A stretch of 64,000 nt of DNA, from positions 56,171 to 120,170 of the IMG/VR virus record IMGVR_UViG_3300037246_001677, one strand, 5' to 3'. Within the stretch, counting starts at the first letter, position 1. Every line of letters starts with the position of its first letter. The DNA is from a virus. Of the stretch, positions 3,037 through 62,030 are shown one piece after another. The notes beneath the pieces are model-generated. The model searched no databases, was not told the origin of the DNA, and saw nothing but the letters and a program-made list of their open reading frames with translations. The position numbers were made by a program, and so were the translations under genes.

Positions 3037-3227
3037 AATTCAAAGAATACATAGAAGAAGGAAAGGAAGCAAAATTCATAAAGGCTATTAAAGGTGCTGT
3101 GTCCATGGCTCAAGCCAGAAGATATAAAGAGTTATTTCATCTAATGGATATGAGTGAGAAAGAAAGAGAAAAAATAAAAAAAGCACTAGATATTAAGTTA
3201 TCATCATTAGAGAAGAAAAGGAAATGA
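3033..3227 (+). CDS. Small predicted virion cargo protein, unknown function
   Basis: 64 residues. I chose ATG 3033 because it forms an ATGA overlap with the previous stop and puts the signal MKFKEYIEEG, with site IEE, at the N-terminus; an in-frame upstream ATG at 2997 would bury it. The rest is a lysine-rich helical sequence. No family recognised. Confidence 0.7.
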   Translation: MKFKEYIEEGKEAKFIKAIKGAVSMAQARRYKELFHLMDMSEKEREKIKKALDIKLSSLEKKRK

Positions 3228-4648
3228 ATAAATTCAATGACTTCATATTTGATGGATTAGGACCAGCGGATCAGTTCAAAAAAATAAAAGTAATAAATGA
3301 AAAATCAGATAAAACATTTGACTTCAACGTTTTAATACTTACTAGCAAAGCTGATGAAAATCCAGATGGTCTTTACCAAACTGCAGAACGACTTGCTGAT
3401 GAATGTACTAAAAAGGGAATATCAAATTATATAATGTTTTCAGAATCAGCAAGGTTAGAGTTGGACGATGATGGAAATTATACTGCATATAACTTAGAAG
3501 ACCCCACTGGTTTTCCAGTTCTACCAGACAAAACTGTCGCCATAAACAGAGGTTCTGTTATGGAAAAGTTTAACTCACGTAATATAATTTCACAATTAGA
3601 AAGGGGAAACATCTTTTGTATAAACTGTAGAGAGTGTATAGAAGTGTGTAATGATAAGTATAGAACAATATTAAGACTCGCGGACGCTGGTATTGCCTCA
3701 CCAAAAACAGTGCTCATACAGGGAGAAGAAGGAATAGATGATGCAGTAGAACAAATTGGTGGTAAATTCCCATATATATTAAAAACATTATTTGGGTCCA
3801 AAGGAATTGGGGTTATGTTTGTTGAATCATTAAAATCATTAAAATCAATGCTTCAGCTTATATGGAAAGTAAGTGAAGATGAAGAACTTATACTTCAAGA
3901 ATACATACCAACAGATTATGATGTAAGAGTTCACGTTTTAGGTGATGAAGTTATTGCCGCTATGAGAAGATATATAATAAAAGATGACTTCAGAAGTAAC
4001 TACTCACAAGGTGGTAAAGTAACCAAACATAAATTATCAGATATTGAAAAAGAAGCTTGTATTAAATCCTCAAAAGCCGTTGGTGCTTCATGGAGTGGTG
4101 TGGATTACATTCTTAACAGTAAAAAAGAGCCATTAGTAATAGAAGTAAATGCTTCACCGGGAACCGAAGGCATAGAAGAGGCAACTAAAGAAAATGTAGT
4201 TGGTAAAATATTAGATTGGGCCGGTGATAAAAGTAACTGGGATAAAGTATCCAAAGAAATTGGATATAAAGAAATGGTTAAAGTTAATGGATTTGACCTT
4301 GTAGCTAAATTTGATACAGGAAATGGACTTCTTTCTGTAATGCACGCTGATAAATATGAAATTAATAAGAAGAAGAAATTGGTTACTTGGACATCACATG
4401 GTAAAAAGTTTGAGAATGAATTAAAAGACATAGAGGAAGTAGAAGTTGGTGGAGCTAAAAATTATACTGAAAAAAGACCAGAAATAGAACTAGATATGTT
4501 CTTTGATGGTGTGTTATATAAAGAAGTGGGGTTTACCTTAGATGATAGATCAGACAGGACACCAATATTAATAGATCGTAGTTTTATGAAAAGAGCAAAT
4601 GTTTCGGTCAATCCAGCCAAACAGTTTGTAATAACTGTAGAGGAGTAA
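3224..4648 (+). CDS. RimK-type ATP-grasp ligase fused to RimB/ATP-dependent-zinc-protease-like domain
   Basis: 474 residues. Residues about 25-330 look like an ATP-grasp ligase of the RimK family: PKTVLIQG lid strand, PYILKTLFGSKGIGV (phosphate-binding loop), LILQEYIP (adenine contacts), DYDVRVHVLG, and the metal-binding end VIEVNASPGTEGIE. RimK enzymes add glutamate or similar amino acids to a carboxyl group. From about residue 360 a second domain contains AKFDTGNGLLS and later DRTPILIDRSFM, the pattern of the retropepsin-like RimB/Zn_protease family, which partners RimK in bacteria. Both functions are joined in one chain here. The N-terminus MNKFNDFIFDG resembles the cargo signal but lacks a glutamate. 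The gene lies in the packaged-protein operon. Substrate unknown. Confidence 0.8.
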   Translation: MNKFNDFIFDGLGPADQFKKIKVINEKSDKTFDFNVLILTSKADENPDGLYQTAERLADECTKKGISNYIMFSESARLELDDDGNYTAYNLEDPTGFPVLPDKTVAINRGSVMEKFNSRNIISQLERGNIFCINCRECIEVCNDKYRTILRLADAGIASPKTVLIQGEEGIDDAVEQIGGKFPYILKTLFGSKGIGVMFVESLKSLKSMLQLIWKVSEDEELILQEYIPTDYDVRVHVLGDEVIAAMRRYIIKDDFRSNYSQGGKVTKHKLSDIEKEACIKSSKAVGASWSGVDYILNSKKEPLVIEVNASPGTEGIEEATKENVVGKILDWAGDKSNWDKVSKEIGYKEMVKVNGFDLVAKFDTGNGLLSVMHADKYEINKKKKLVTWTSHGKKFENELKDIEEVEVGGAKNYTEKRPEIELDMFFDGVLYKEVGFTLDDRSDRTPILIDRSFMKRANVSVNPAKQFVITVEE

Positions 4649-41133: not shown

Positions 41134-42059
41134 TAAACTACTCCATTGCTTATATGCATGATGCGATCATCCATAGCTTGTAATTGTTTCTCTTGTAATT
41201 GTCTTGTAATAAAAGACTCTTGTTTCCAAACCTGTAGCTTCTTTCCTAATTCAATATATACCTGCTCTTCTTTGTATATAGCTTCTATCTGTGCTAACTT
41301 TCTATCTGTAATATCAAGTGCTATAACTCTAGCCCCAACTGGTATTCCTCTTTTCATTTTATAACTAGCTGTAATTAAACACCAAACTGTTGATCCATTT
41401 TTAATTTTAACTTCATACTCAAAAGTATTTGGTACTTTTTTTCCCTGTGACATTAACATATATCTCTTAATCCAATTTTTTCTGCTTTGTTCAGTAAGTA
41501 CATCACTTATACTCATTTTCAAAAGCTCTTCCCTACTCCAACCAGTAAGTTCACACATAACATCATTTACATAAGTAAGTACATTTCTTCTAAAACAAAT
41601 TTCATATATTGCAGCATGTGTTTTTTCTACAATTTCTTGATACATTCCTTGAATATGTAATTTTTCTAATTCTAATCTTTTTCTTTCTATAGCATACTTA
41701 ACTGATCTTATTAATAAACCAGGTGTTAATATATCATTTGGTGGGAGAAAATCTTGTGCGCCATGTCTTACAGCATCACATCCTAAATCATCATATTTAG
41801 ATATAATAATAATAGGACAATCCTCACAGTATCCATATAACCTTTTAAAAGTATCAATGCCTTCACTGTTTGGTAAAACTAAGTCTAATAAAACTATATC
41901 AATATTAATTTTGTTAAATTTCTTAGCTTCTTTTAAAGTTTTAACATGTGATATTTCAAACCTTGTAAATTTAGTCTCACTGAGTTTGTTTTTAATAAAA
42001 TCGGAAGTTTTTTCGGATCCCTCAACAAGCAATAACCTTACAACTTCTGGAATTTGCAT
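41133..42059 (-). CDS. Receiver (REC) - PAS domain protein
   Basis: 308 residues. Residues about 7-125 form a response-regulator receiver: LLLVEGSE (acidic pair reduced to one glutamate), IVLLDLVLPNS with the phospho-acceptor Asp59, IIIISK (switch serine) and GAQDFLPPN, where the usual conserved lysine is replaced by proline. A PAS domain follows (about 140-255) with YVNDVMCELTGWSREELL and a PAC-like end (GARVIALDITDRK). The C-terminal 50 residues are helical. There is no kinase, DNA-binding or cyclase output. It could bind a host sensor kinase or a ligand. Such two-domain proteins are common in bacteria but unexpected in a phage head/tail region. Confidence 0.82.
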   Translation of the reverse strand: MQIPEVVRLLLVEGSEKTSDFIKNKLSETKFTRFEISHVKTLKEAKKFNKINIDIVLLDLVLPNSEGIDTFKRLYGYCEDCPIIIISKYDDLGCDAVRHGAQDFLPPNDILTPGLLIRSVKYAIERKRLELEKLHIQGMYQEIVEKTHAAIYEICFRRNVLTYVNDVMCELTGWSREELLKMSISDVLTEQSRKNWIKRYMLMSQGKKVPNTFEYEVKIKNGSTVWCLITASYKMKRGIPVGARVIALDITDRKLAQIEAIYKEEQVYIELGKKLQVWKQESFITRQLQEKQLQAMDDRIMHISNGVV

Positions 42060-42068
42060 TTTTGCTCC

Positions 42069-51342: not shown

Positions 51343-52176
51343 ATGGACAAACTTCTTGAAATACTTGGCGCTAATAAGTTAAACGAAGACGATCAGAGTC
51401 AAGTAAAAGAAAGACTTGAAACACTAATTGAAGTGAAAGGTCAAGAACTGTCACAGAGCAAACTTCAGGAAGCGAAGGAACAGCTAGTAGAGTCCTACGA
51501 AACTAAATTTGAAGAATATAAAGAAGATATTACTTCCAAGTTTTCAAACTTCGTTGACTCAGTTTTGGAAGAAGAAATGACAATTCCAGATAAAGTTCTT
51601 GAATTTGCAAAGAAGGGTGAGTTATATCATGACTTGATTGAACAATTCAAAATCAGATTAAGCGTTGATGAAGGATTGCTTGATGAAGAAGTGAAAAACT
51701 TACTCAAAGAAGCTAAAGGAGAAATCCTTAAACTTCGATCAGACCTTGATGAAAACATTGCTAAAAATCTTGAAGTCATCAGTGACGCACAAGAATTGGC
51801 ATCTGAGCTTTATCTCAGAAGAAAATGCGATGGTCTAACTGAAAGCCAAAAGAAAAGAGTTCTTGAAATGCTTTCTGGCATTAAAGACAGGGCTGAAATA
51901 GATCGCAAATTTGACATCGTTCTCGAAGCTTACGACGACAAAGAAGAAAAAGATGACGAGGAAGAAGAGGACGACGAGAAAAAGGAAAAGAAAAAGAAAG
52001 ACAAAGAAGAAGAAGAGGAAGACGAAGACGAGAAAAAGAAGAAAGACGAGGAAGAAGAAGAGGAAGACAAGAAAAAGAAGGAAGACAAAAAAGCCAATGA
52101 AGGCTTAAATGAGGACAGTCCCTTCAAACAACACCTTAAAGAGTATCAAAAGATACTAAGAGAAGGTAGATTTTAA
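51343..52176 (+). CDS. gp22: Prohead scaffold (core) protein, T4 gp22-like
   Basis: 277 residues in the expected position before the capsid gene. Mostly helical, with LDEEVKNLLKEA and the block DAQELASELYLRRKCDGLTESQKKRVLEML typical of gp22 C-terminal cores. Residues about 200-255 are an almost pure run of lysine, glutamate and aspartate, unusually long. The N-terminus MDKLLEILGANKLNED contains LNE, a likely protease site. The scaffold is expected to be degraded by the gp21-like protease. Confidence 0.88.
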   Translation: MDKLLEILGANKLNEDDQSQVKERLETLIEVKGQELSQSKLQEAKEQLVESYETKFEEYKEDITSKFSNFVDSVLEEEMTIPDKVLEFAKKGELYHDLIEQFKIRLSVDEGLLDEEVKNLLKEAKGEILKLRSDLDENIAKNLEVISDAQELASELYLRRKCDGLTESQKKRVLEMLSGIKDRAEIDRKFDIVLEAYDDKEEKDDEEEEDDEKKEKKKKDKEEEEEDEDEKKKKDEEEEEEDKKKKEDKKANEGLNEDSPFKQHLKEYQKILREGRF

Positions 52177-52208: not shown

Positions 52209-53432
52209 ATGGACGTTAGAGACCTAGTCAAAAAATGGGAAGGAGTTCTAAATGAAGGCGGAAAAATTAAATCTGAAAAGATTCAAAAAAGTACTGCCAT
52301 CATGTTAGAAAACCAACACAACTACCTCATGGAGCAAACTGCTTGGGGTAATGACTCGTTTGGTACTGGTGACGGTCGTGGCTTAGCTAATTGGCCAACT
52401 TCTGGTATGTTTAACAAAATCGCAGTTCCGATGGTTAGACGTACTTTTCCAGAATTGGTAGCACATCAACTAGTTGGTGTACAACCACTAACCGGACCTG
52501 TTGGTCTTGCTTTTGCGCTTAGGTTCAGAGCAGGTACGACAGCCGGTAATTATACTGCGAATGTAACAGAACTTGGTTACAATACCATCGACTCTACTTA
52601 TTCAGGTTCATATATCACCTCTGCTGGTGAAGCCTTAGGTTCTAAGGCCGGTTCTGGTGTAGGAAATGATATTGGACTTGGTGTAGGATCTGGTACACAT
52701 ATTCGTGAAGTCAACTTGACCGTTGAAAAAGTACAGATTGAAGCAAAAACCCGTAAACTAAGAAGCCGTTGGTCCCTTGAAGTTGCTCAAGATTTGAAAG
52801 CTATGCACGGTCTTGATCTCGAAGAGGAAATGATGGATATTCTAGCTTACGAAATTACCCAAGAAATCGACCGTGAATTGATTGCAGCTATAGACGCTAC
52901 AGTCAGAGGCGTTACTGGTTATGACACAACCTGGGACTTCTTAGCTTCGGCACAAGGAGTAAAAGGTAGATGGGAGATGGAGCGTTATCGTGAGCTTTAT
53001 CACAGTGTTATACGTAGATGCCAAGACATCGCAATCAACACACGTAGAGGATCGGGTAACTGGATCGTAGGTAATCCAAGAGCCGTTGCTATTCTTGAAA
53101 CTCTGGCAGCTTTTACAATTGCCCCAGTTCCAAGTGATGTAACAACTCAACCAACTGGAGTATCAAGGATCGGTTCTCTTGACGGAAGATTAGTAGTTTA
53201 CCGTGATACTTTTGAAAGTAGAGATCAATTCCTAGTGGGTTATAAAGGCCCAAGTGAATATGATACAGGTGTAATTTATTTACCTTACATCCAACTACTT
53301 GCAAGTAAAGCAGTATTCGAAAACTCATTCCATCCAACAGTAGGATTGATGAGTCGTTATGCGATTCACAACCATATGTTCGGAGCAAGAGAATATTACC
53401 AGTTAATTCAATTAACGAATATTCCACAATAA
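52209..53432 (+). CDS. gp23: Major capsid protein, T4 gp23-like
   Basis: 407 residues. After an N-terminal pro-region with NYLMEQTAWG (predicted cut after Glu42, LME) the gp23 pattern is clear: VPMVRRTFPELVAHQLVGVQPLTGPVG in pieces, FALRFRAGT, and a C-terminal VGLMSRYAIHNHMFGAREYYQLI. It is shorter than T4 gp23 (521), lacking part of the insertion domain. The first residues, MDVRDLVKKWEGVLNEG, also resemble the cargo signals (LNE), consistent with the signals binding the same core. Codon usage includes more GC-rich codons than the neighbours, common for highly expressed genes. Confidence 0.93.
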   Translation: MDVRDLVKKWEGVLNEGGKIKSEKIQKSTAIMLENQHNYLMEQTAWGNDSFGTGDGRGLANWPTSGMFNKIAVPMVRRTFPELVAHQLVGVQPLTGPVGLAFALRFRAGTTAGNYTANVTELGYNTIDSTYSGSYITSAGEALGSKAGSGVGNDIGLGVGSGTHIREVNLTVEKVQIEAKTRKLRSRWSLEVAQDLKAMHGLDLEEEMMDILAYEITQEIDRELIAAIDATVRGVTGYDTTWDFLASAQGVKGRWEMERYRELYHSVIRRCQDIAINTRRGSGNWIVGNPRAVAILETLAAFTIAPVPSDVTTQPTGVSRIGSLDGRLVVYRDTFESRDQFLVGYKGPSEYDTGVIYLPYIQLLASKAVFENSFHPTVGLMSRYAIHNHMFGAREYYQLIQLTNIPQ

Positions 53433-53446
53433 AGAGTAAACCAAAC

Positions 53447-53481
53447 AAAAAGGCGGTGAATTTATTTTCACCGCTTTTTTT
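53447..53481 (+). terminator. Rho-independent terminator after the capsid gene
   Basis: AAGGCGGTGAA pairs with TTCACCGCTTTTTT around a short T-rich loop, followed by a T run. It lies 15 nt after the capsid stop and before the gp16 promoter. Confidence 0.85.
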
Positions 53482-53491
53482 ATGCCAAATA

Positions 53492-53527
53492 TTTACATTT
53501 AACCATTTTTGTAGTATAATATAAATA
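53492..53527 (+). promoter_or_regulatory. Composite sigma-70-like and late-type promoter before gp16
   Basis: TTTACA (53492-53497), 17-bp spacer and TATAAT (53515-53520), sharing its last base with TATAAATA (53520-53527). So an early-type and a late-type promoter overlap here and would serve gp16, prkA and the genes after them. Confidence 0.65.
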
Positions 53528-53550: not shown

Positions 53551-53976
53551 ATGGAATTAAACAGAAATAATTTATCCGATGCCTTTGATATGGATGGCAT
53601 AGAAAGTGAAGTGGATCGTCTTACCCTTGTTTCAGACACTGACCCGGAAGAAGTACTTAAAGAAAATATAGACAGAGCGAATAGAATATTAGATAGGGTA
53701 GAACAAGAATTAGAAAGTGGAAATTTTACAGCAAGAATGGTAGAGGTTGCTGGAGCCATTTTAAATACCGTAACGAACTCGAGTAAGGAAATAATGGCTA
53801 ACATTAACTATAAAAAATATTTACAAATTCGCGATTCTATGGTAAAATATAAGTATGATGAATTGGAATCCAAAAAAGCAAAATTCCGTTCTCCAACGAG
53901 TCAAAATATTATCGTCTCAAATAGAGAAGATATAATGAAACTACTAAACGGAGAATTAAAACAAATTGAAAAATAA
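53551..53976 (+). CDS. gp16: Terminase small subunit, T4 gp16-like
   Basis: 141 residues from ATG 53551, with AGGAGG 11 nt upstream. The pattern ANRILDRVEQELESGN, ARMVEVAGAILNTVTNSSKEIM is that of gp16-type small terminases (helix-turn with a central coiled coil for ring assembly). It recognises concatemer DNA and activates the large subunit gp17. Here gp17 is not adjacent: the 6.5 kb PrkA-DUF444-SpoVR cassette separates them. Confidence 0.8.
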   Translation: MELNRNNLSDAFDMDGIESEVDRLTLVSDTDPEEVLKENIDRANRILDRVEQELESGNFTARMVEVAGAILNTVTNSSKEIMANINYKKYLQIRDSMVKYKYDELESKKAKFRSPTSQNIIVSNREDIMKLLNGELKQIEK

Positions 53977-54001
53977 AAAACTAAAAGAAAGGAAAACTGT
54001 T

Positions 54002-55966
54002 ATGTTTGATAAGAACAACGATTTTATGGAGGTCATCCTTGGTCAGCAAAAAGGAACTGGTATCAAAAAGTGGGAGGGAACGACCATTGATTATTTGGCT
54101 GAAGTAGAAAAAAGACCAGAAATTTGCAATTTTGCCCCTGGTCGAATCTATAATATGATTATGAAGGTGGGCACAGAGCAAGTATCAGACGAGTTAAAAA
54201 CTAAAGGTTATGAGGATTTAGTTAAATATAATTTCTTCAAGAAAAAAATCTTCGGTACTCTTGAGCCGATTCATGATATGATGAAATTTATGAAAGCCGC
54301 TGCAAGGAGAACAGAAACTGGTAAACGAATCTTTATCATGGTTGGTCCTGTTTCTTCGGGTAAATCAACTATCGCTGCCTTAATCAAAAGAGGACTTGAA
54401 AAGGACTGTACTCCAAAATATGCAATCTCAGGATGTCCAATCCACGAGGAACCTCTTCACTTGATTCCAGAAGATGATCGACCATACTGGGAGGATCGAC
54501 TTGGTATAAAAATCGAGGGCCATCTTTGTCCGGTTTGTACTCAAATGTTGGATGAAAAATACACAAACAAAGATGGAGTAATTCAATGGCATGAGGTACC
54601 AACCGAAACAATTAGAATCAGTGAACAACGAAGGATTTGTATCGGTACATTCCAACCTAGTGATCCAAAATCACAGGACATTACTGAACTTATTGGTCGA
54701 GTTGATATGACTAAGATGGCTAGATATGGTGAAACCGATCCAAAAGCTTATAAGTTCGATGGTGAGCTTCAAGTTGCAAATGGTGGTATGATTGAATACA
54801 TCGAAATTCTAAAAGCAGATATTAAATTTCACTATATTCTTATCACCGCCGCTCAAGAGCAAGTTATCAAGGCCCCTGGTTTCCCACAAATGTACATTGA
54901 TACATTGATTATGAGTCATACAAACCAAACAGAATTTGACTCATTCAAATCAGACAAAAAGAACGAAGCTCTACATGATAGGATGTATAAAGTAGAGGTA
55001 CCATGGAATCTAAGAGTAGATGATGAAATAAAGATTTATGAAAAAATGATTGATGAATCTGACTTTAGAAATATCCATATCGCCCCTGGAACATTGAGAG
55101 TTGCCGCAGAGTTTGCAGTACTTTCAAGATTGAGAAAGTCAACCAGAGTTAGCAATAAAATCACCAAGATGAAACTCTACAACGGTGAAATTCCAGTCGA
55201 GTTCAAAAAGACCGACATTGATATTAAGAAATTAAGAGAAGAAGGAAGAGAACTAGGTGAAGGTATGAGTGGTATCTCTCCAAGATTTGTTGTTAATGCT
55301 CTTAACTTAGCACTTGGTGCAAAAGAAGAAAGGAAGTGTATAAATCCGATTGACATGATTAGATCACTTAGAGATAACTTTAACCATCACATTGGTATTC
55401 CAGATGAAGATAAAGAAATCTTTATGAGTATATTAACTGGTAACAAAGAGTCGGTAGCATCCGAGTATAAAGATTGGGCAAAGAAAGAAGTCAACATGGC
55501 TTTCTTATGGGCATATGATGAACAAGCCCAGGAACTATTTTACAGGTATATGATAAATGCCGAAGGTTATTGTAAAAATGAACAAATCATTGATTCAGTA
55601 ACTGGTGAATATCATAACCCAGATGAAAAAGTCATGAGGTCCATCGAAGAACTAATCGGAGTACCAATGGAATCAAGAAAAGAATTTAGAAATGGTATTT
55701 TCGTTTATAAATCAGACTTCTTAGGTAGAGGCAAAGACTTTACTTTCAAGGACTACGATCCGTTGAGAGAAGGTATTGAGAAAAAGTTGATGGGTGATTT
55801 GAAAAATGTTGTATCACTTTCAATTGCTGACTCATCTGCCACAAATCCGAAGTCCAAAAAGAGAAGAGAGGTGGCCCTGGAAACCTTGAAAGAAAAAGGA
55901 TATTGTGATAAATGTGGTTCAATGCTTCTTAGCTTTATAGGTGAGGTATTACGTAAGGAAGATTAA
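54002..55966 (+). CDS. prkA: PrkA-type serine protein kinase / AAA+ protein
   Basis: 654 residues from ATG 54002, preceded by AAAGGAAA; the frame stays open further upstream. E. coli YeaG is of similar size. The AAA+ domain has FIMVGPVSSGKSTIAALI (Walker A), zinc-like cysteines CPIHEEP and CPVCTQML, and the conserved PrkA block RRICIGTFQPSDPKSQDITELIGRVD. The C-terminal kinase-like domain and a final CDKCGSMLL follow. PrkA/YeaG acts with YeaH (DUF444) and SpoVR in starvation and stationary-phase stress in enterobacteria; activity as a kinase or AAA+ protease has been proposed. All three partners are encoded here. No cargo signal is visible. Confidence 0.93.
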   Translation: MFDKNNDFMEVILGQQKGTGIKKWEGTTIDYLAEVEKRPEICNFAPGRIYNMIMKVGTEQVSDELKTKGYEDLVKYNFFKKKIFGTLEPIHDMMKFMKAAARRTETGKRIFIMVGPVSSGKSTIAALIKRGLEKDCTPKYAISGCPIHEEPLHLIPEDDRPYWEDRLGIKIEGHLCPVCTQMLDEKYTNKDGVIQWHEVPTETIRISEQRRICIGTFQPSDPKSQDITELIGRVDMTKMARYGETDPKAYKFDGELQVANGGMIEYIEILKADIKFHYILITAAQEQVIKAPGFPQMYIDTLIMSHTNQTEFDSFKSDKKNEALHDRMYKVEVPWNLRVDDEIKIYEKMIDESDFRNIHIAPGTLRVAAEFAVLSRLRKSTRVSNKITKMKLYNGEIPVEFKKTDIDIKKLREEGRELGEGMSGISPRFVVNALNLALGAKEERKCINPIDMIRSLRDNFNHHIGIPDEDKEIFMSILTGNKESVASEYKDWAKKEVNMAFLWAYDEQAQELFYRYMINAEGYCKNEQIIDSVTGEYHNPDEKVMRSIEELIGVPMESRKEFRNGIFVYKSDFLGRGKDFTFKDYDPLREGIEKKLMGDLKNVVSLSIADSSATNPKSKKRREVALETLKEKGYCDKCGSMLLSFIGEVLRKED

Positions 55967-56077
55967 AAATAGCAGATTGGAACTTTAGTAGACTGCCGTT
56001 AGCGGGCCGGTGCTCATTGAGATAGGAAGGTTAAAATAAATAGCAGACTGACAAATATCCGTTGAGCTATGGAGGTG
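55967..56077 (+). ncRNA. Candidate structured RNA between prkA and downstream genes
   Basis: The stretch does not code. Two related units begin AAATAGCAGA-T/C-TG (about 55968 and 56038) and end in a GAG-T/C-purine-rich stretch followed by GGAAGG or GGAGGT and AAAA. The first unit includes GCCGTTAGCGGGCCGG, which can form a GC-rich hairpin unlike the AT-rich background. It ends directly before a strong terminator, so it may be a stable RNA or a regulated leader/attenuator. No known riboswitch class fits. Confidence 0.4.
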
Positions 56078-56112
56078 AAAACTCCGGAGGTTTTCCTCCG
56101 GAGTTTTCTTAT
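56078..56112 (+). terminator. Strong rho-independent terminator
   Basis: AAAACTCCGGAGG and CCTCCGGAGTTTT form a perfect 13-bp stem with a TTTT loop, followed by CTT. Separates prkA from the following promoter. Confidence 0.85.
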
Positions 56113-56121
56113 CTGAAGTAA

Positions 56122-56150
56122 TTTACATTCTCACTGAGTTATGATATAAT
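56122..56150 (+). promoter_or_regulatory. Sigma-70-like promoter for the DUF444-SpoVR operon
   Basis: TTTACA (56122-56127), 17-bp spacer and TATAAT (56145-56150), just before ATG 56157. The first gene would have an almost leaderless transcript. Confidence 0.75.
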
Positions 56151-56156
56151 AAGATT

Positions 56157-56333
56157 ATGAATAAGAAAATAATAAATTTTATTTTCACTTTGTTATTAAT
56201 AAGAATGTTCGTTATAAGCGCATTTAATATTTGGCTTGTGTTTTTGCTTATAGTTTTTTGTGGAGACTGGTTAGCTATATTATGGTTAACTGATAAAAAT
56301 AATGATGAAAGGAAACAAAATGAATCTTTATAA
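56157..56333 (+). CDS. Small membrane protein
   Basis: 58 residues, beginning MNKKIINFIFTLLLI and continuing with two hydrophobic stretches (about 7-22 and 24-43) and a charged tail. It has no ribosome site and starts 6 nt after the -10 box, so it may be translated from a near-leaderless transcript. Overlaps the next gene by 14 nt. Confidence 0.55.
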   Translation: MNKKIINFIFTLLLIRMFVISAFNIWLVFLLIVFCGDWLAILWLTDKNNDERKQNESL

Positions 56334-56499
56334 GAAGAACATGGGATTTTTTATTAATGCTGCCTTTTGGACAATAGCACTTTTTACTGATCCAATTTGG
56401 ATATTAATTAAAGAGTTAGGACCAATAGCTCTTGCTTTACCAGTTATGTTTGGTTGGTTACTGGCTAACTTTGAAAAAGATATTGACTGGGAGTTATAA
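56320..56499 (+). CDS. Small membrane protein
   Basis: 59 residues from ATG 56320 after AAAGGAAAC. Two hydrophobic segments (FFINAAFWTIALF; LGPIALALPVMFGWLL) with a short loop. Shares one base with the next start. Its place between prkA and the DUF444 gene suggests a membrane partner for that system, without further proof. Confidence 0.6.
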   Translation: MNLYKKNMGFFINAAFWTIALFTDPIWILIKELGPIALALPVMFGWLLANFEKDIDWEL

Positions 56500-56720
56500 T
56501 GATAAGAACAATAATAAGAGAAATTGTTTATGCCGGAACTACTATAGCAATATCATTATTTAATGCTCTAGTAGAAACCTATGTAGCAATAAGAAGTATA
56601 ATGACTTGCATATGGTGGATGATGAATTTTTGCACTGTTGAGTATACAGTTGAGGATGACGATGGAACAATAATACACCGATTTCCCCAATTAAATAATG
56701 GAGACAATGATGGATTCTGA
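56499..56720 (+). CDS. Small membrane-associated protein
   Basis: 73 residues; a hydrophobic N-terminal half (AGTTIAISLFNALVETYVAI, then IMTCIWWMMNF) and an acidic C-terminus with a short beta hairpin. Third of three small membrane-type proteins in a row. Family unknown. Confidence 0.6.
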   Translation: MIRTIIREIVYAGTTIAISLFNALVETYVAIRSIMTCIWWMMNFCTVEYTVEDDDGTIIHRFPQLNNGDNDGF

Positions 56721-56895
56721 AAGAAAATTTGAATTGATAAAAGAACTAATAAAGGACCATAAGGTTAGTAAAATAAATAGCTTTGCCGCTATGATAGCTT
56801 TGGAATTAATAGTTGATCCTAAAAAACCAAGCAAAGAATGCAAAGAGTGGGCCAAGGATTGCTTAAAAATAGGAAGGTATTATAATGAAAATTGA
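56710..56895 (+). CDS. Small helical protein
   Basis: 61 residues from ATG 56710 (56707 also possible), with GGAG upstream. Charged and helical, with CKEWAKDCLKIGRYY. Overlaps both neighbours by about 11 nt. Function unknown. Confidence 0.6.
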   Translation: MDSERKFELIKELIKDHKVSKINSFAAMIALELIVDPKKPSKECKEWAKDCLKIGRYYNEN

Positions 56896-57070
56896 AGTGA
56901 CACTAACTGTAGTAGAAAACGAATCCATTGAATATACTATCACCACAGGTGGAGAAACCTGGGAAGATATTCACACAATAATAAATAATGCAGAAAAAAT
57001 TAATTTACGAAAAGAAAAACCAAAGAAAAAAGGAAAGAGATTACCTGGATTTATACAGGAAAAGGAGTAA
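56885..57070 (+). CDS. Small protein, unknown function
   Basis: 61 residues. A beta-like N-terminus (KIEVTLTVVENESIEYTI) and a lysine-rich C-terminus. GGAAGG precedes the start. Not recognised. Confidence 0.6.
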   Translation: MKIEVTLTVVENESIEYTITTGGETWEDIHTIINNAEKINLRKEKPKKKGKRLPGFIQEKE

Positions 57071-57075
57071 ATGAA

Positions 57076-57258
57076 ATGCCTTACATAACGAAGGAAGATT
57101 TCAAATTTTTGCTCAGCTTGGCTCCTGATTGGGTTAATGATCCCAATAACGGACACGATCCAACTATGTACGGAACTGGAACCTATGAAGGGGATATCAA
57201 AGTCCACAATCGGATGGTAGAAATCAAGAATCAAATCCTTGGAAAGGAAAAAATATGA
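57076..57258 (+). CDS. Small protein, unknown function
   Basis: 60 residues, beginning MPYITKEDFKFLLSLAPDW; single compact helical unit with a histidine-containing loop (NNGHDP). Overlaps the DUF444 gene by 4 nt, so the two are translationally coupled. Confidence 0.6.
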   Translation: MPYITKEDFKFLLSLAPDWVNDPNNGHDPTMYGTGTYEGDIKVHNRMVEIKNQILGKEKI

Positions 57259-58610
57259 ACATACTTACTGGACTAGGCTTAGTAGCCACCACTATTTTAC
57301 ATGACGACTGGGATTTAAGTGAGAAAGGTAAAAAGGATGCCGAACGACATCAAGAAAAAATTGATGATGCTATTCGGAAAAATGTCCGTGATGTTATAGG
57401 TGAAGAGTCAATCATTACTAAAAAGGGGAAACGAAAAGTTCGAGTACCTGTAAGAGGAATGAAAGATTATAGATTTGTTCACGGTGATAATAAAGGACCA
57501 ACTGCTGGTGTTGGACAAGGTGATGGAAAAGCTGGTGATATTATCGACCAGAGACCGAATCAAGATGGACAACCTGGTGAACACAAACCTGGTGAACAAC
57601 GAGGTGAAGATTATATGGAAGCAGAAGTTGATATTGACTATCTGCTCAAAATAATGTTTGAGGACCTTGGTCTTCCTTGGATTGAAGAAAAAACTACTGC
57701 CAAAAAACTTGTTCCAAAGGGTTGGAAATTCGAAACAATTTCTAAAAAGGGCATCATGCCAAGGGTTCATAAAAAAAGAACAATGATGGAGGCAGTTAAA
57801 AGAAATATCATGTTATCCGCCGCTATCATGGAAGAAACTGGAGTTGATGAACCAACATCCTATAAAGCATTAAACCAAGCATATGGCGATATAAATTATG
57901 CTATAGAACTCATTGAAAAGAATGAAGTCAATTCAGATCAAGATGCGATTGTTATCAATGAGGATGACTTAAGATTCAAACAAATTGAAGAGGACACAGA
58001 ATACCATTCAAATGCTGTAGTTATAGCAATGATGGATGTATCTTATTCAATGGGTCCAGAAAAGAAGTACTTATGTAGAAGCCTTCTTTTCTGGTTGACT
58101 GAGTTTTTAAAGAAAAGATATGACCATGTTGATATTAGATTCATTCAACATACGACAGAAGCACAAATTGTTGATGAAGATACATTCTTTCACACTCACA
58201 CAACTGGTGGTACCATGTGTTTTACTGCTTTTGAAAAAGCTAACTACATGATTGACACAGAATATCCGTTGAATGAGTGGAATGTTTACTGTATCTATGT
58301 TGGTGATGGTGAAGATTTTGATACCAAGAAAACAGTTCAACAAATTGATTTAATGATTCAGAAGAAAATCAACATGTTAGGTTATGTTGAAATTGATCTT
58401 GACCACGACGAAGATGGTTTTGGTTTTAGAAATGCAATGAGAACTCTTCTGGTACAAATTAAAAAGAAATGGAATTTTTCCCATAACCGCGAAAGAGAAA
58501 CTGATTTTTATAAAAATGAAAAGAGTAGATTTCTGTGTGCAGTTATTAGGAATAAAACTCATGTATGGCCAACCCTTAAACACTTTTTATTTGAAAAGGA
58601 GAAAAAATAA
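57255..58610 (+). CDS. yeaH: DUF444 (YeaH/YhbH-type) protein with VWA-like domain
   Basis: 451 residues. A basic N-terminal region with GVGQGDGKAGDII and a P/G-rich linker is typical of the family. The C-terminal half has AMMDVSYSMGPEKK, a MIDAS-type metal site (D-x-S-x-S) of a von Willebrand A fold, followed by HTHTTGGTMCFTAFEKA. YeaH homologues are encoded next to prkA/yeaG and ycgB in many bacteria and are thought to work with them. Present here at full family length and in the normal gene order. Confidence 0.92.
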   Translation: MNILTGLGLVATTILHDDWDLSEKGKKDAERHQEKIDDAIRKNVRDVIGEESIITKKGKRKVRVPVRGMKDYRFVHGDNKGPTAGVGQGDGKAGDIIDQRPNQDGQPGEHKPGEQRGEDYMEAEVDIDYLLKIMFEDLGLPWIEEKTTAKKLVPKGWKFETISKKGIMPRVHKKRTMMEAVKRNIMLSAAIMEETGVDEPTSYKALNQAYGDINYAIELIEKNEVNSDQDAIVINEDDLRFKQIEEDTEYHSNAVVIAMMDVSYSMGPEKKYLCRSLLFWLTEFLKKRYDHVDIRFIQHTTEAQIVDEDTFFHTHTTGGTMCFTAFEKANYMIDTEYPLNEWNVYCIYVGDGEDFDTKKTVQQIDLMIQKKINMLGYVEIDLDHDEDGFGFRNAMRTLLVQIKKKWNFSHNRERETDFYKNEKSRFLCAVIRNKTHVWPTLKHFLFEKEKK

Positions 58611-58828
58611 TGGAAATGTTAAACGAAAGACAATTAGAAAACGGTGACTATGTTTATGACTGTACTTTTGAAGATGGTGAGTTCAAAACTCTATTAGGGT
58701 ATACCATTGAAAAGTACTTGAAAAATGAAGCCGATGAACTGACAGAAGAAATGAATAAGCTGATGAGTTTTGCTGTGACTGGTATCCTAAGAGAACAAAT
58801 GGAAAGGGAACACGATGGAAAAAAGTGA
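58610..58828 (+). CDS. Small acidic protein between DUF444 and SpoVR genes
   Basis: 72 residues, acidic, with VYDCTFEDGEFKTLLGYTIE. It shares one base with the DUF444 stop and overlaps the spoVR start by 14 nt, so it is tightly coupled to both. Not part of the bacterial operons that I know. Confidence 0.6.
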   Translation: MEMLNERQLENGDYVYDCTFEDGEFKTLLGYTIEKYLKNEADELTEEMNKLMSFAVTGILREQMEREHDGKK

Positions 58829-60395
58829 ACTAAAACAACTAATAAAAATAGAGGATAGAATATATCAAATTGCAGAAGAAGAAGGACTTGAGTTCTGCGA
58901 TATTGAATTTGATATTATCCCACCACAGAAAATGCTAGAGATTATGGCTTACCGAATCCCCGGTAATATTTCAAACTGGAAGTATGGACGTGACTATGAA
59001 AGACTCAGAACAATTCATGAAAAGGTTCACGCGGGACTTCCATATGAAGTAGTCATAAACTCAGACCCATCAAGAGCATACTTGATGAAAGAGAACACTT
59101 TTGCTGTTCAAGCATTAGTCATGGCTCATGTTGTTGGTCACGTTGCTTTTTTCACAATGAATAAGTACTTCGCAGATACAAATAAAGATATTATTCCATT
59201 TATGAGTGAAGCTACAAAAAGATTCAATAAGTATGAAAGAATGTATGGCATAGATCAAGTTGAAAAAATAATTGATGCCGCACATTCAATTCAGTTTCAC
59301 TCTAGTCCATTTGATAATGAAACTGAAACTGAAAAAAGAGAAAGGATTTTTAAACAAAGAAAACAACAAGCTCATACAAAAAGAACAGCGGAATTTGATG
59401 ATATTGTTCCTATTGATGAAGCCTATAAAGACATGGATATTGCTCAATTCAATCAAAGACTTTGGAGATCATTAAAACTTAAAACACCTGTTGAACCAAC
59501 AGAGGACTTGTTAAGATATGTTATTGATAATTCAACAACACTTGAAAATTGGCAGAAAGATATTCTTGAAGTACTTAGAAGAGAAGGTAGATACTTCTGG
59601 CCTCAAATGAGAACCAGATATATGAATGAAGGATTTGCAACTTATTGGCATGAAAAAATAATGGGTAGATTATTTAAAGAAGAAGCGCTAAACATAAAAG
59701 ACCATGCTCAATATAACTTTTCTAACTCACTTGTAAAAGCCTCCCATAGAACAGCTTTAAATCCATATCTTATTGGTTCTAAAATGTGGGAAGATATTGT
59801 AATGAGATATGATAAAGGTAGATACGGTAGAGATTGGGATAATTGTGAACTCAGAAAGGAAAGAGATAATTGGGACACTAAAGAAATGCGTGGCAAAGAA
59901 AAAATGTTTGAGATCGTCAGAACCCATACTGACTGGTTCTTTATGAAAGGATATTTAACCCCAGATTTGGTAGATGATTTAGAACTCTACATTTTTGTTG
60001 AAAGAGTAAACCCAGTGACAAAGGACTTAGTCATTACAAAACAAAGAGCTGAAAAGATTGCTGAAATGATTGTACTAAACTTCACTCACAGTGGTGTTCC
60101 AAAAATTGACATCGTTGATGGCAATTGGAAGCAGATGGGACATTTATATCTTGCGCATAGATGGTCCGGAGCTAATCTTAAAAGAGATTACTGTAAAAAG
60201 ACCTTACAACATATTGCAAATATTTGGGGTAAGAATGTCTATCTCGAAACAAAAGATGGTCCTAAGAAAAAACTAATATATAAAGTAGAAAGAAAAGCCA
60301 AACTTGGTGGACCAAAGACACCTTCCGGTTCTCCAAGTATTAGCAGTAGTAGCATAAATCCGGATGTTTGGTCAACAATGATCGTTTCTGAATAA
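58815..60395 (+). CDS. spoVR: SpoVR/YcgB-family protein
   Basis: 526 residues, close to E. coli YcgB. Family features: FDIIPPQKMLEIMAYRIPG, NWKYGRDYERLR, MAHVVGHVAFFTMNKYFADT, WPQMRTRYMNEGFATYWHEKIM and LYLAHRWSGANLKRDYCKKTL in separate blocks. SpoVR is needed for spore cortex formation in Bacillus; YcgB is co-regulated with YeaG/YeaH in enterobacteria. Biochemical role unknown. It is followed by a strong terminator. Confidence 0.93.
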   Translation: MEKSELKQLIKIEDRIYQIAEEEGLEFCDIEFDIIPPQKMLEIMAYRIPGNISNWKYGRDYERLRTIHEKVHAGLPYEVVINSDPSRAYLMKENTFAVQALVMAHVVGHVAFFTMNKYFADTNKDIIPFMSEATKRFNKYERMYGIDQVEKIIDAAHSIQFHSSPFDNETETEKRERIFKQRKQQAHTKRTAEFDDIVPIDEAYKDMDIAQFNQRLWRSLKLKTPVEPTEDLLRYVIDNSTTLENWQKDILEVLRREGRYFWPQMRTRYMNEGFATYWHEKIMGRLFKEEALNIKDHAQYNFSNSLVKASHRTALNPYLIGSKMWEDIVMRYDKGRYGRDWDNCELRKERDNWDTKEMRGKEKMFEIVRTHTDWFFMKGYLTPDLVDDLELYIFVERVNPVTKDLVITKQRAEKIAEMIVLNFTHSGVPKIDIVDGNWKQMGHLYLAHRWSGANLKRDYCKKTLQHIANIWGKNVYLETKDGPKKKLIYKVERKAKLGGPKTPSGSPSISSSSINPDVWSTMIVSE

Positions 60396-60446
60396 AAAAA
60401 CCCTGTATATCCGCATAAATAACTAAGTAGATATACAGGGTTTTTT
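60395..60446 (+). terminator. Bidirectional terminator with CATAAATA in its loop
   Basis: AAAAAACCCTGTATATC (60395-60411) and GATATACAGGGTTTTTT (60430-60446) form a perfect 17-bp stem. The 18-nt loop contains CATAAATA (60414-60421), a late-promoter-like octamer 62 nt before the large terminase gene. Confidence 0.85.
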
Positions 60447-60482: not shown

Positions 60483-62030
60483 ATGGCAATAAGGTACGAC
60501 CAACAATTTGTTAAAAGACCAAGAGAAGAACTAGAATATACACCAGAACAGATACTTGAACTTCAAAAATGCATGCAAAGTGTTAATTATTTTTTGAAGT
60601 ATATTAAAATAGTTAACCCAGACCGAGGTGAAATATTTTTCGAACCGTATGATTATCAAATCGAGCTTCTTCAAAAGTTTCAGGATCATAGATTTAATGT
60701 AGGTTTATGCTCTCGCCAATCTGGTAAAACAACTATCGTATCTGCTTACGTACTTTGGTATGCTATTTTTCATGCAGATAAAAATATAGGAATTGTATCA
60801 AATAAAGAGTCAAGTGCCAAAATGATTTTATCAAGACTCAAAAGAATGTATGAGTGCTTACCATTTTGGTTAAAACCAGGTGTTACAGAATACTCTAAAA
60901 CTTTTACTACATTTGATAATGGAACAAGAATAATTATTTCAGCAACCTCACCCGATGCCTTTCGTGGTGAGTCAATGAACCTACTATGTTGTGACGAATT
61001 TGCGTTCGTCCCAAGTGTAGCAGCTGAGGACTTCTGGGCTGCTAACTATCCCACCATTTCAGCATCCAAACAAGCAAAAATCATAATCATTTCAACTCCA
61101 AACGGTCTATTCAATATATTCCATAGAATATGGGCACAGGCCAAAGCTGGGCTAAATACTTTTGTAACCACAAAAGTAAGTTATGAAAGAGTACCAGGCA
61201 GAGACGAAGAGTGGGCTGAAGAACAAATCAAAAATCTTGGTATGCAAAAGTTCAATCAAGAATTTGCAGTTAAGTTTATTGGATCAACAAATACAGTTCT
61301 AAACTCAGAAACAATTAAAACACTTCTAGCCTCTTGGAAAGAACCAGAGTTTGTAGACTTACAAGATAGACTCAGAATTTGGGAAAAACCAGAAGAAGGA
61401 GCATCATATGTATTAGGAGTAGACCCGGCAAAAGGAACAGGAGAAAACTGGTCCACAATACAAGTTTTTAAAATAATATCCTTAAATCCAGTAAAAATGG
61501 ATCAAGTTGCAGTATTCGAACATAATCTAACAGATGTTTTTGAATTTACAGATATTGTAGATAAAACATGTCTATACTATAACGGTGCATATATAATGTG
61601 TGAAAATAATGGTGAAGGCGCTGCAGTAATTCAAAGACTATGGTGGGATATTGAAAACGAACATCTTGTCAACTCTGGTTCCAAAACAGCTAGCCTTGGT
61701 GTTAGAGCTTCAAGAACCACAAAACCAAAAGCTGTTTTACTTATGAAAAAATTGATAGAAGATGGTAGTGTAAAGTTGGTTGATAAAAACACTATTCAAC
61801 AACTTGGTTCATTTATAGAAGAAAAAAATAAGTTTTTTGGTAAAGATAAACCAGATGATTTAGTATCAGCACTTTACTGGGCATGTTATCTATTAGAAAT
61901 GGATGTTCTTGATGAAAGTTATGAATTTATTGAATCTGAGGATAACGATGACGCATGGGGAGTACTATCAGACGTTGAGGCTGATATAGATGACTGGAGA
62001 TGGTTGACCGAAACAGAAGTTTTTGGATAA
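60483..62030 (+). CDS. gp17: Terminase large subunit, T4 gp17-like
   Basis: 515 residues. ATPase: CSRQSGKTTIVSAY (Walker A), LLCCDEFAFV (Walker B with catalytic glutamate), IIISTPNG (coupling motif). Nuclease: LGVDPAKG (first aspartate), MCENNGEGAAVIQRL and DKPDDLVSALYWA (later acidic residues). It pumps DNA into the prohead and cuts it. GGGAGGGAG precedes the start. Confidence 0.93.
   Translation: MAIRYDQQFVKRPREELEYTPEQILELQKCMQSVNYFLKYIKIVNPDRGEIFFEPYDYQIELLQKFQDHRFNVGLCSRQSGKTTIVSAYVLWYAIFHADKNIGIVSNKESSAKMILSRLKRMYECLPFWLKPGVTEYSKTFTTFDNGTRIIISATSPDAFRGESMNLLCCDEFAFVPSVAAEDFWAANYPTISASKQAKIIIISTPNGLFNIFHRIWAQAKAGLNTFVTTKVSYERVPGRDEEWAEEQIKNLGMQKFNQEFAVKFIGSTNTVLNSETIKTLLASWKEPEFVDLQDRLRIWEKPEEGASYVLGVDPAKGTGENWSTIQVFKIISLNPVKMDQVAVFEHNLTDVFEFTDIVDKTCLYYNGAYIMCENNGEGAAVIQRLWWDIENEHLVNSGSKTASLGVRASRTTKPKAVLLMKKLIEDGSVKLVDKNTIQQLGSFIEEKNKFFGKDKPDDLVSALYWACYLLEMDVLDESYEFIESEDNDDAWGVLSDVEADIDDWRWLTETEVFG

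What the first reader, a model, noticed from the sequence alone, without database searches (positions are those of the whole stretch)
53551..60395. Complete PrkA - DUF444 - SpoVR stress cassette inserted between small and large terminase genes
Seen: full-length prkA (54002-55966), DUF444/yeaH (57255-58610) and spoVR/ycgB (58815-60395), in the bacterial order, lie between gp16 and gp17, which are adjacent in T4. The cassette has two sigma-70-like promoters and two strong terminators, plus seven small genes not known from bacterial operons. Established: yeaG-yeaH and ycgB are co-regulated in stationary phase and nitrogen starvation. Inference: the phage uses the system to manage host state (starved hosts, dormancy, proteostasis) or to act on the host copy.
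Basis: partly seen in the sequence, partly recalled or inferred. Interest (0 to 1): 0.9.

Follow-up and report, generated by a model that had tools for sequence, protein, structure and literature searches.

The report
Bacterial stress-gene trio inside phage packaging genes
A whole family of T4-like phages carries a complete three-gene bacterial starvation/stress machine (PrkA, DUF444 and SpoVR) as a fixed part of its DNA-packaging gene cluster, and unrelated phages have captured the same trio several other times, which suggests that phages have a general and still unknown use for it.

Summary
Full-length prkA, DUF444 and spoVR lie between the small (gp16-like) and large (gp17-like) terminase genes of a T4-like IMG/VR contig. 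Predicted catalytic and metal-site residues are intact and Ka/Ks is as low as for capsid and terminase genes. It is not a one-off insertion. In a clade of uncultivated T4-like phages (PrkA 63-95% identical to the window), 62 of 66 informative TerL loci have SpoVR upstream of TerL; TerS-prkA spacing is always 151 bp or less (median 25 bp, 47 loci). PrkA and SpoVR trees agree on one block capture from a bacterium (known relatives: Spirochaetota and Myxococcota MAGs), the DUF444 tree is compatible, and one lineage nested in the clade lacks the block. Separately, other T4-like phages, Thermus phages and huge phages carry the complete trio, with different gene order or genome position; the PrkA tree forces at least five phage/bacterium switches. 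The trio therefore behaves as a unit. The likeliest reading is an active AAA+ (PrkA)/VWA-adaptor (DUF444)/putative metalloprotein (SpoVR) machine that adjusts physiology in slow or starved hosts; a direct role in head assembly or packaging is the main rival. Function is inferred, not shown. The fixed TerS-TerL core module and repeated whole-unit capture appear new.

The parts
52209..53432 (+). major capsid protein gp23-like (left neighbour)
   Evidence: PF07068 E=6.6e-93
53453..53481 (+). intrinsic terminator after the capsid gene (GCGGTGAA...TTCACCGC, then T7)
   Evidence: sequence; stem changes paired in relatives
53492..53520 (+). sigma-70-like promoter (TTTACA-17-TATAAT) for terS-prkA
   Evidence: conserved in 4 relatives
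53551..53976 (+). small terminase TerS (gp16-like); ATG with AGGAGG upstream
   Evidence: phrog_445 E=0.004; homologues in the same position across the clade
54002..55966 (+). PrkA, AAA+ ATPase with PrkA C-terminal domain
   Evidence: PF08298, PF06798; matches solved PrkA 9xip E=1.3e-118; Walker A G115-P116...K121-S122 and N260, G262, E268, H306, N308, R327 invariant in 23 phage/bacterial sequences
56080..56109 (+). intrinsic terminator after prkA
   Evidence: sequence; conserved in relatives
56122..56150 (+). extended sigma-70-like promoter (TTTACA-17-TATAAT) for the DUF444-spoVR unit
   Evidence: conserved in relatives
56157..56333 (+). small ORF o58, one hydrophobic (membrane-like) segment
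   Evidence: found only in the closest relatives; Ka/Ks 0.19-0.42; hydropathy
56302..56499 (+). small ORF o65, hydrophobic
   Evidence: closest relatives only
56499..56720 (+). small ORF o73
   Evidence: closest relatives only
56698..56895 (+). small ORF o65b
   Evidence: closest relatives only
56885..57070 (+). small ORF o61
   Evidence: closest relatives only; Ka/Ks 0.07-0.20
57076..57258 (+). small ORF o60, not found in any relative examined
57255..58610 (+). DUF444 (YeaH/YhbH family), VWA domain with complete MIDAS (D261, S263, S265, T320, D351)
   Evidence: PF04285; invariant columns in A4; predicted VWA fold, best PDB hits TFIIH p44 and integrin I domains, E about 1e-6
58610..58828 (+). 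small ORF o72 between DUF444 and spoVR
   Evidence: closest relatives only; Ka/Ks 0.12-0.44
58815..60395 (+). SpoVR (YcgB family); invariant H105, H109, E150, D154, E272, H279
   Evidence: PF04293 + PF24755; 46-sequence alignment A3; predicted model pLDDT 87
60394..60446 (+). intrinsic terminator after spoVR
   Evidence: sequence; conserved in 4 relatives
60483..62030 (+). large terminase TerL (gp17-like; right neighbour)
   Evidence: PF03237, PF17289

Best explanation
Shown by sequence: an ancestor of this T4-like clade acquired a whole prkA-DUF444-spoVR operon, most likely from a bacterium, between terS and terL. It has since been inherited with the head genes as a core, strongly constrained module in two predicted transcription units (terS-prkA; small genes-DUF444-spoVR). 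Inferred: the three proteins work as one machine. PrkA forms an AAA+ ATPase ring, DUF444 is its VWA/MIDAS adaptor that recruits targets, and SpoVR is a metal-site partner or client. During infection the phage-made machine remodels or regulates host proteins, resetting the physiology of slow-growing or starved cells so that late phage production can be completed (works like YeaG-YeaH-YcgB, but under phage control).
For: Complete families with intact predicted ATPase, MIDAS and metal-site residues. Ka/Ks 0.06-0.17, equal to MCP and TerL; clade identity PrkA 68%, TerL 64%, MCP 66%. Unit behaviour: 33 of 33 viral SpoVR loci with more than 5 kb on both sides have all three genes, and the one clear loss lacks all three at that site. 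Repeated capture by T4-like, Thermus and huge phages, with different gene orders and genome positions, so the benefit is not tied to a packaging locus. Clade A is monophyletic in all three gene trees; PrkA and SpoVR have a bacterial sister, whose chromosomal context is confirmed. Gene distances correlate with those of terminase and capsid (r 0.62-0.83). Literature: YeaG/YeaH act together as a metabolic brake in N-starved E. coli (PMC10954441); B. anthracis PrkA shows no kinase or protease activity and resembles AAA+ clade III machines (PMC13001217).
Against: No expression, host or phenotype data. The AAA+/VWA adaptor idea rests on domain types, not on a tested contact. The sigma-70-like promoters do not tell early from late expression. 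In this clade terS-prkA is always tightly linked, which a pure host-physiology role does not require. A lineage without the cassette exists (L265), so it is not strictly essential at that site.
Confidence: 0.5

Rival explanations
1. Head-assembly/packaging machine: PrkA, made from the same mRNA as TerS, is an AAA+ remodeler for terminase, portal or scaffold, with DUF444 as adaptor; the phage has recruited the bacterial machine for morphogenesis.
For: TerS-PrkA gap is 151 bp or less in all 47 measurable loci (median 25 bp) and in the window and near relatives they share a promoter and terminator. Cassette sits between TerS and TerL across the clade. In Thermus phage Lalka27a it lies between minor head protein and TerL; in phiYS40 it is about 1.2 kb from TerL.
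Against: In clade B T4-like phages and in huge phages TerL is far from the cassette, with helicase, endonuclease or exonuclease neighbours in clade B. Loss in L265 leaves a TerS-TerL pair. Bacterial homologues have no known link to capsids.
Confidence: 0.2
2. Counter-defence or superinfection role: the machine disarms a host dormancy or abortive-infection response, or blocks a competing phage.
For: Bacterial homologues act in growth arrest (PMC10954441); many independent captures; lineage-specific small genes between prkA and DUF444 could carry variable specificity.
Against: Cassette proteins evolve slowly and keep pace with structural genes, unlike typical counter-defence genes; no defence-family test of the cassette was made here.
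Confidence: 0.15
3. Dominant-negative or decoy copy that poisons the host's own PrkA-DUF444-SpoVR complex.
For: Phage proteins belong to the same families and could form mixed complexes with host copies.
Against: All predicted catalytic and metal-site residues are intact, and all three subunits are kept together; a decoy would need neither.
Confidence: 0.07
4. Passenger cargo without benefit, or an assembly or binning artefact.
For: None found.
Against: Ka/Ks about 0.1; conserved in at least 62 loci; conserved promoters and terminators.
Confidence: 0.02

Closest known systems
E. coli YeaG-YeaH-YcgB and Bacillus PrkA-YhbH-SpoVR (bacterial PrkA/DUF444/SpoVR systems)
   Same: All three families in full length, with the invariant residues; gene order prkA-DUF444-spoVR is the one seen in many bacteria.
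   Different: Sits inside a phage head cluster, next to terS in one predicted transcription unit; only 26% (YcgB) to 59% (nearest bacterial PrkA) identical; extra small genes; no sign of the host stress regulon.
Thermus phages phiYS40/TMA, MN1, Lalka27a/27b/8, phiLo (annotated 'serine kinase', 'SpoVR', vWA protein)
   Same: All three families adjacent or nearly so; near TerL in phiYS40 and Lalka27a.
   Different: Order DUF444-SpoVR-PrkA; separate place in the PrkA and SpoVR trees, so an independent capture; 29-36% identical in PrkA.
Huge phages LR756502, LR756504, LR756511, LR745206 and Ralstonia jumbo phage RsoM2USA (PMC8504454)
   Same: Carry PrkA and SpoVR; DUF444 also found in the huge-phage records.
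   Different: Most are YeaG-type or otherwise distant PrkA, placed apart in the tree and far from TerL in the records tested; RsoM2USA reported as single gene hits (SpoVR ORF28, PrkA ORF30), not as a machine.
T4 gp16-gp17 terminase region
   Same: gp20-gp21-gp22-gp23 upstream, TerS and TerL in the same direction.
   Different: In T4 gp16 and gp17 are adjacent (own knowledge); here about 6.5 kb with the cassette lies between them.
AAA+/VWA pairs such as MoxR-VWA, RavA-ViaA, CbbQ-CbbO (own knowledge)
   Same: An AAA+ ATPase encoded next to a MIDAS-bearing VWA protein.
   Different: PrkA is not MoxR; a third protein, SpoVR, is always present; the partnership here is inferred from gene linkage only.

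Membership tests
PrkA family (PF08298 + PF06798) | AAA_PrkA and PrkA C-terminal domains over curated cut-offs | tested here: met
   369.7 and 219.8 bits against cut-offs of 25; 9xip match E=1.3e-118
PrkA family (PF08298 + PF06798) | Walker A and other invariant ATPase residues | tested here: met
   invariant in 23 sequences
PrkA family (PF08298 + PF06798) | serine kinase or protease activity | not testable with these tools
   disputed even in bacteria (PMC13001217)
DUF444/YeaH | PF04285 match and VWA fold with MIDAS DxSxS...T...D | tested here: met
   294.5 bits; D261, S263, S265, T320, D351 invariant; VWA fold hits
SpoVR/YcgB | PF04293 + PF24755 and invariant H/E/D set | tested here: met
SpoVR/YcgB | metal binding and structural relatives | tested here: inconclusive
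   predicted model pLDDT 87, but no PDB hit with E<0.001 (best 0.29); zincins appear only among insignificant hits
Bacterial PrkA-DUF444-SpoVR operon | all three genes linked | tested here: met
Bacterial PrkA-DUF444-SpoVR operon | starvation or stationary-phase regulation and phenotype | not testable with these tools
   no expression data
T4-like phages | gp20/gp21/gp23/gp17-type head genes in T4 order | tested here: met
T4-like phages | T4 late promoters (TATAAATA) enriched | tested here: not met
   12 sites, 11.6 expected; late regulation probably differs; this is a trait of T4 itself rather than of all relatives

The most novel reading that the evidence does not exclude
In this phage clade the bacterial PrkA-DUF444-SpoVR machine has become part of virion morphogenesis: PrkA, co-produced with TerS, remodels terminase/portal complexes, making a new kind of packaging or assembly ATPase accessory in T4-like phages.
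Probability: 0.17. Interest if true: 0.85.

Novelty: new variant of a known kind. Interest (0 to 1): 0.62.

Why it matters
The biochemical job of PrkA/YeaG, DUF444/YeaH and SpoVR/YcgB is unknown although the trio is widespread in bacteria. Phages keep only what pays. Several independent captures of the complete trio, never found apart in the well-flanked loci examined, indicate that the three work as one machine, and they provide divergent, compact versions for structure and interaction work. The clade in which prkA is welded to terS raises a testable link between a starvation machine and phage late functions.

Tried and rejected
Enterobacter phage LAU1 YeaG/YeaH: rejected as a phage case; the genes are at the end of a prophage record and look like host flank. 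T4 late promoter TATAAATA: present upstream of TerS but not enriched in the window. Rfam search of the region: nothing. Foldseek of SpoVR: no significant relative in PDB; one BFVD hit (A0A3Q8HYQ4, no name given). L076/L077 were first suspected to be phage contigs in MAGs; their flanks (ribosomal S4, FtsH, MFS, IclR) show bacterial chromosome. The phiYS40 virion-proteome and transcription papers are not held, so expression class or virion presence of the Thermus versions could not be checked. Clade B and Thermus DUF444 sequences were too divergent for the DUF444 tree, so for those clades joint entry rests on linkage and on the PrkA and SpoVR trees.

Full report
WHAT IS THERE. The window is positions 56171-120170 of a 120,170-base IMG/VR contig. 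Around the finding the genes read portal, head protease, gp22-like, major capsid gp23-like, TerS, PrkA, six small ORFs, DUF444, one small ORF, SpoVR, TerL, neck-type protein. The three cassette proteins are full length and far over the Pfam cut-offs. The better start of TerS is ATG 53551, with AGGAGG upstream. Sequence shows intrinsic terminators after the capsid gene, after prkA and after spoVR, and two near-consensus sigma-70 promoters upstream of terS and of the small-gene/DUF444/spoVR unit. Three + strand sites of at least 11/12 were found where 0.39 are expected. Promoters and terminators are conserved in up to four relatives, with paired changes in the stems. The region is thus predicted to be two transcription units, terS-prkA and small genes-DUF444-o72-spoVR.

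NOT A ONE-OFF. A PrkA search of IMG/VR gave 65 loci. Thirty-four of these belong with the window (PrkA 63-95% identical), and where the contig reaches far enough nearly all show TerS-PrkA-DUF444-SpoVR-TerL, mostly behind gp22-MCP. Searching instead with TerL, so that cassette-less relatives could appear, gave 66 clade members with at least 1.7 kb upstream of TerL or with SpoVR visible; 62 have SpoVR there. Three of the four others have too little upstream sequence to decide. The fourth, L265 (same TerL as L264 and L268), has TerS, one 212-aa ORF and TerL, and its TerL is nested inside the clade: one loss of the whole block at that site, with relocation elsewhere not excluded. TerL relatives at about 30-37% identity show no cassette beside TerL in the loci fetched. 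TerS to PrkA is the most uniform linkage (median 25 bp, maximum 151 bp, n=47); DUF444 to SpoVR is usually tight too (median 14 bp, but up to 1.7 kb); the other gaps vary from tens of bases to several kb. Some loci are overlapping views of one contig.

HOW OLD AND HOW CONSTRAINED. Against the distant members the median identities to the window are PrkA 68%, MCP 66%, TerL 64%, DUF444 58%, SpoVR 56%, TerS 41%. Ka/Ks for the cassette is 0.06-0.17, in the range of MCP and TerL. Distances between phages correlate among all six genes (r 0.62-0.88, each p<=0.001, n=18), as expected for long vertical co-inheritance. The small ORFs occur only in the closest relatives, under weaker constraint, and o60 was found in no relative examined.

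WHERE IT CAME FROM. Clade A is one side of a branch in all three gene trees (SH-aLRT 100, 99 and 98). In the PrkA and SpoVR trees its sister is a patchy bacterial group found in Spirochaetota and Myxococcota MAGs (56-59% identical in PrkA), with chromosomal neighbours confirmed for L076 and L077. The DUF444 tree is compatible. This supports one capture of a whole operon, although the direction of transfer between that group and phages is not strictly proven. In the PrkA tree starred branches force at least five phage/bacterium switches: clade B T4-like phages, Thermus phages, and the huge-phage sequences lie in separate places. Clade B and Thermus phages have the order DUF444-SpoVR-PrkA, which also exists in bacteria. 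In clade B and huge phages the cassette lies far from TerL wherever both were found. All 33 viral SpoVR loci with more than 5 kb on both sides carry all three genes.

HOW IT MAY WORK. PrkA keeps Walker A and other invariant residues and matches a solved PrkA (9xip/9xiq/9xir). DUF444 is predicted as a VWA domain with a complete MIDAS. SpoVR is predicted as a mostly helical fold with no significant PDB relative; its invariant H105, H109, E150, D154, E272 and H279 lie on three helices, which would suit a metal site, but this is inference, because the coordinates could not be inspected. A published E. coli YcgB change, H127Y, arose in an iron(III)-selected population (PMC10044975); H127 is the second histidine of that motif. 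AAA+ plus VWA pairs in general work as ATPase plus substrate adaptor (own knowledge). In E. coli YeaG/YeaH quiesce metabolism in nitrogen starvation (PMC10954441), and B. anthracis PrkA lacks detectable kinase and protease activity (PMC13001217). The most economical model is a phage-encoded ATPase/adaptor/metalloprotein machine acting on host physiology, made from the phage's own promoters. The strongest rival is a role in head assembly or packaging, because of the invariant TerS-PrkA linkage and the TerL-adjacent cassette of Lalka27a.

NOVELTY. Single genes were known in phages: 'serine kinase' and 'SpoVR' in Thermus phage records, SpoVR and PrkA in Ralstonia phage RsoM2USA, and spoVR as the most abundant sporulation AMG in an oxygen-minimum-zone virome (PMC8940887). 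No paper in the held library describes the trio as a phage module; most subscription papers are not held. The fixed TerS-[PrkA-DUF444-SpoVR]-TerL core of a T4-like clade and the repeated whole-unit capture look new.

Noticed in passing
L265:8834-11539 (also L268, L264): Clade member without the cassette at this site: TerS, one 212-aa ORF with a hydrophobic start, TerL; nested inside the clade in the TerL tree.
   Followed up: yes
window SpoVR H109 (58815-60395): E. coli YcgB H127Y, reported in an iron(III)-selected population (PMC10044975), hits the second histidine of the invariant HxxxH motif; yeaG E555* arose in another such population.
   Followed up: partly
window PrkA C176, C179, C635, C638: CPxC ... 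YCxxC pairs conserved in clade A and most Thermus phage PrkA but not in clade B or YeaG type: a possible zinc site that splits the family.
   Followed up: partly
L016, L027, L033 TerL: TerL matches are split into two or three pieces separated by about 0.7-1.1 kb in several clade members, suggesting introns or inserted elements.
   Followed up: no
L125 (Methylococcaceae TMED69 MAG contig): A 306 kb contig binned in a MAG carries a clade B type cassette among many short same-strand ORFs; probably a phage contig in the bin.
   Followed up: partly
L126, genome G026: Alicyclobacillus ferrooxydans has two PrkA copies, one of which is sister to the Thermus phage clade.
   Followed up: partly
window 3197-4648: RimK-type ATP-grasp domain fused to an ATP-dependent zinc protease-like domain (PF05618).
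   Followed up: no
window 41136-42068 (-): Response-regulator receiver domain joined to a PAS domain in a phage genome.
   Followed up: no
window 51343-52176: gp22-like scaffold with a very long lysine/glutamate-rich C-terminal tract.
   Followed up: no
window 55967-56079: About 110 bp non-coding stretch between prkA stop and its terminator with a repeated tagcagaNtg motif; partly kept in relatives; no Rfam match.
   Followed up: partly
L075 (Enterobacter phage LAU1): yeaG-yeaH at the end of a prophage record; probably host flank rather than phage genes.
   Followed up: partly
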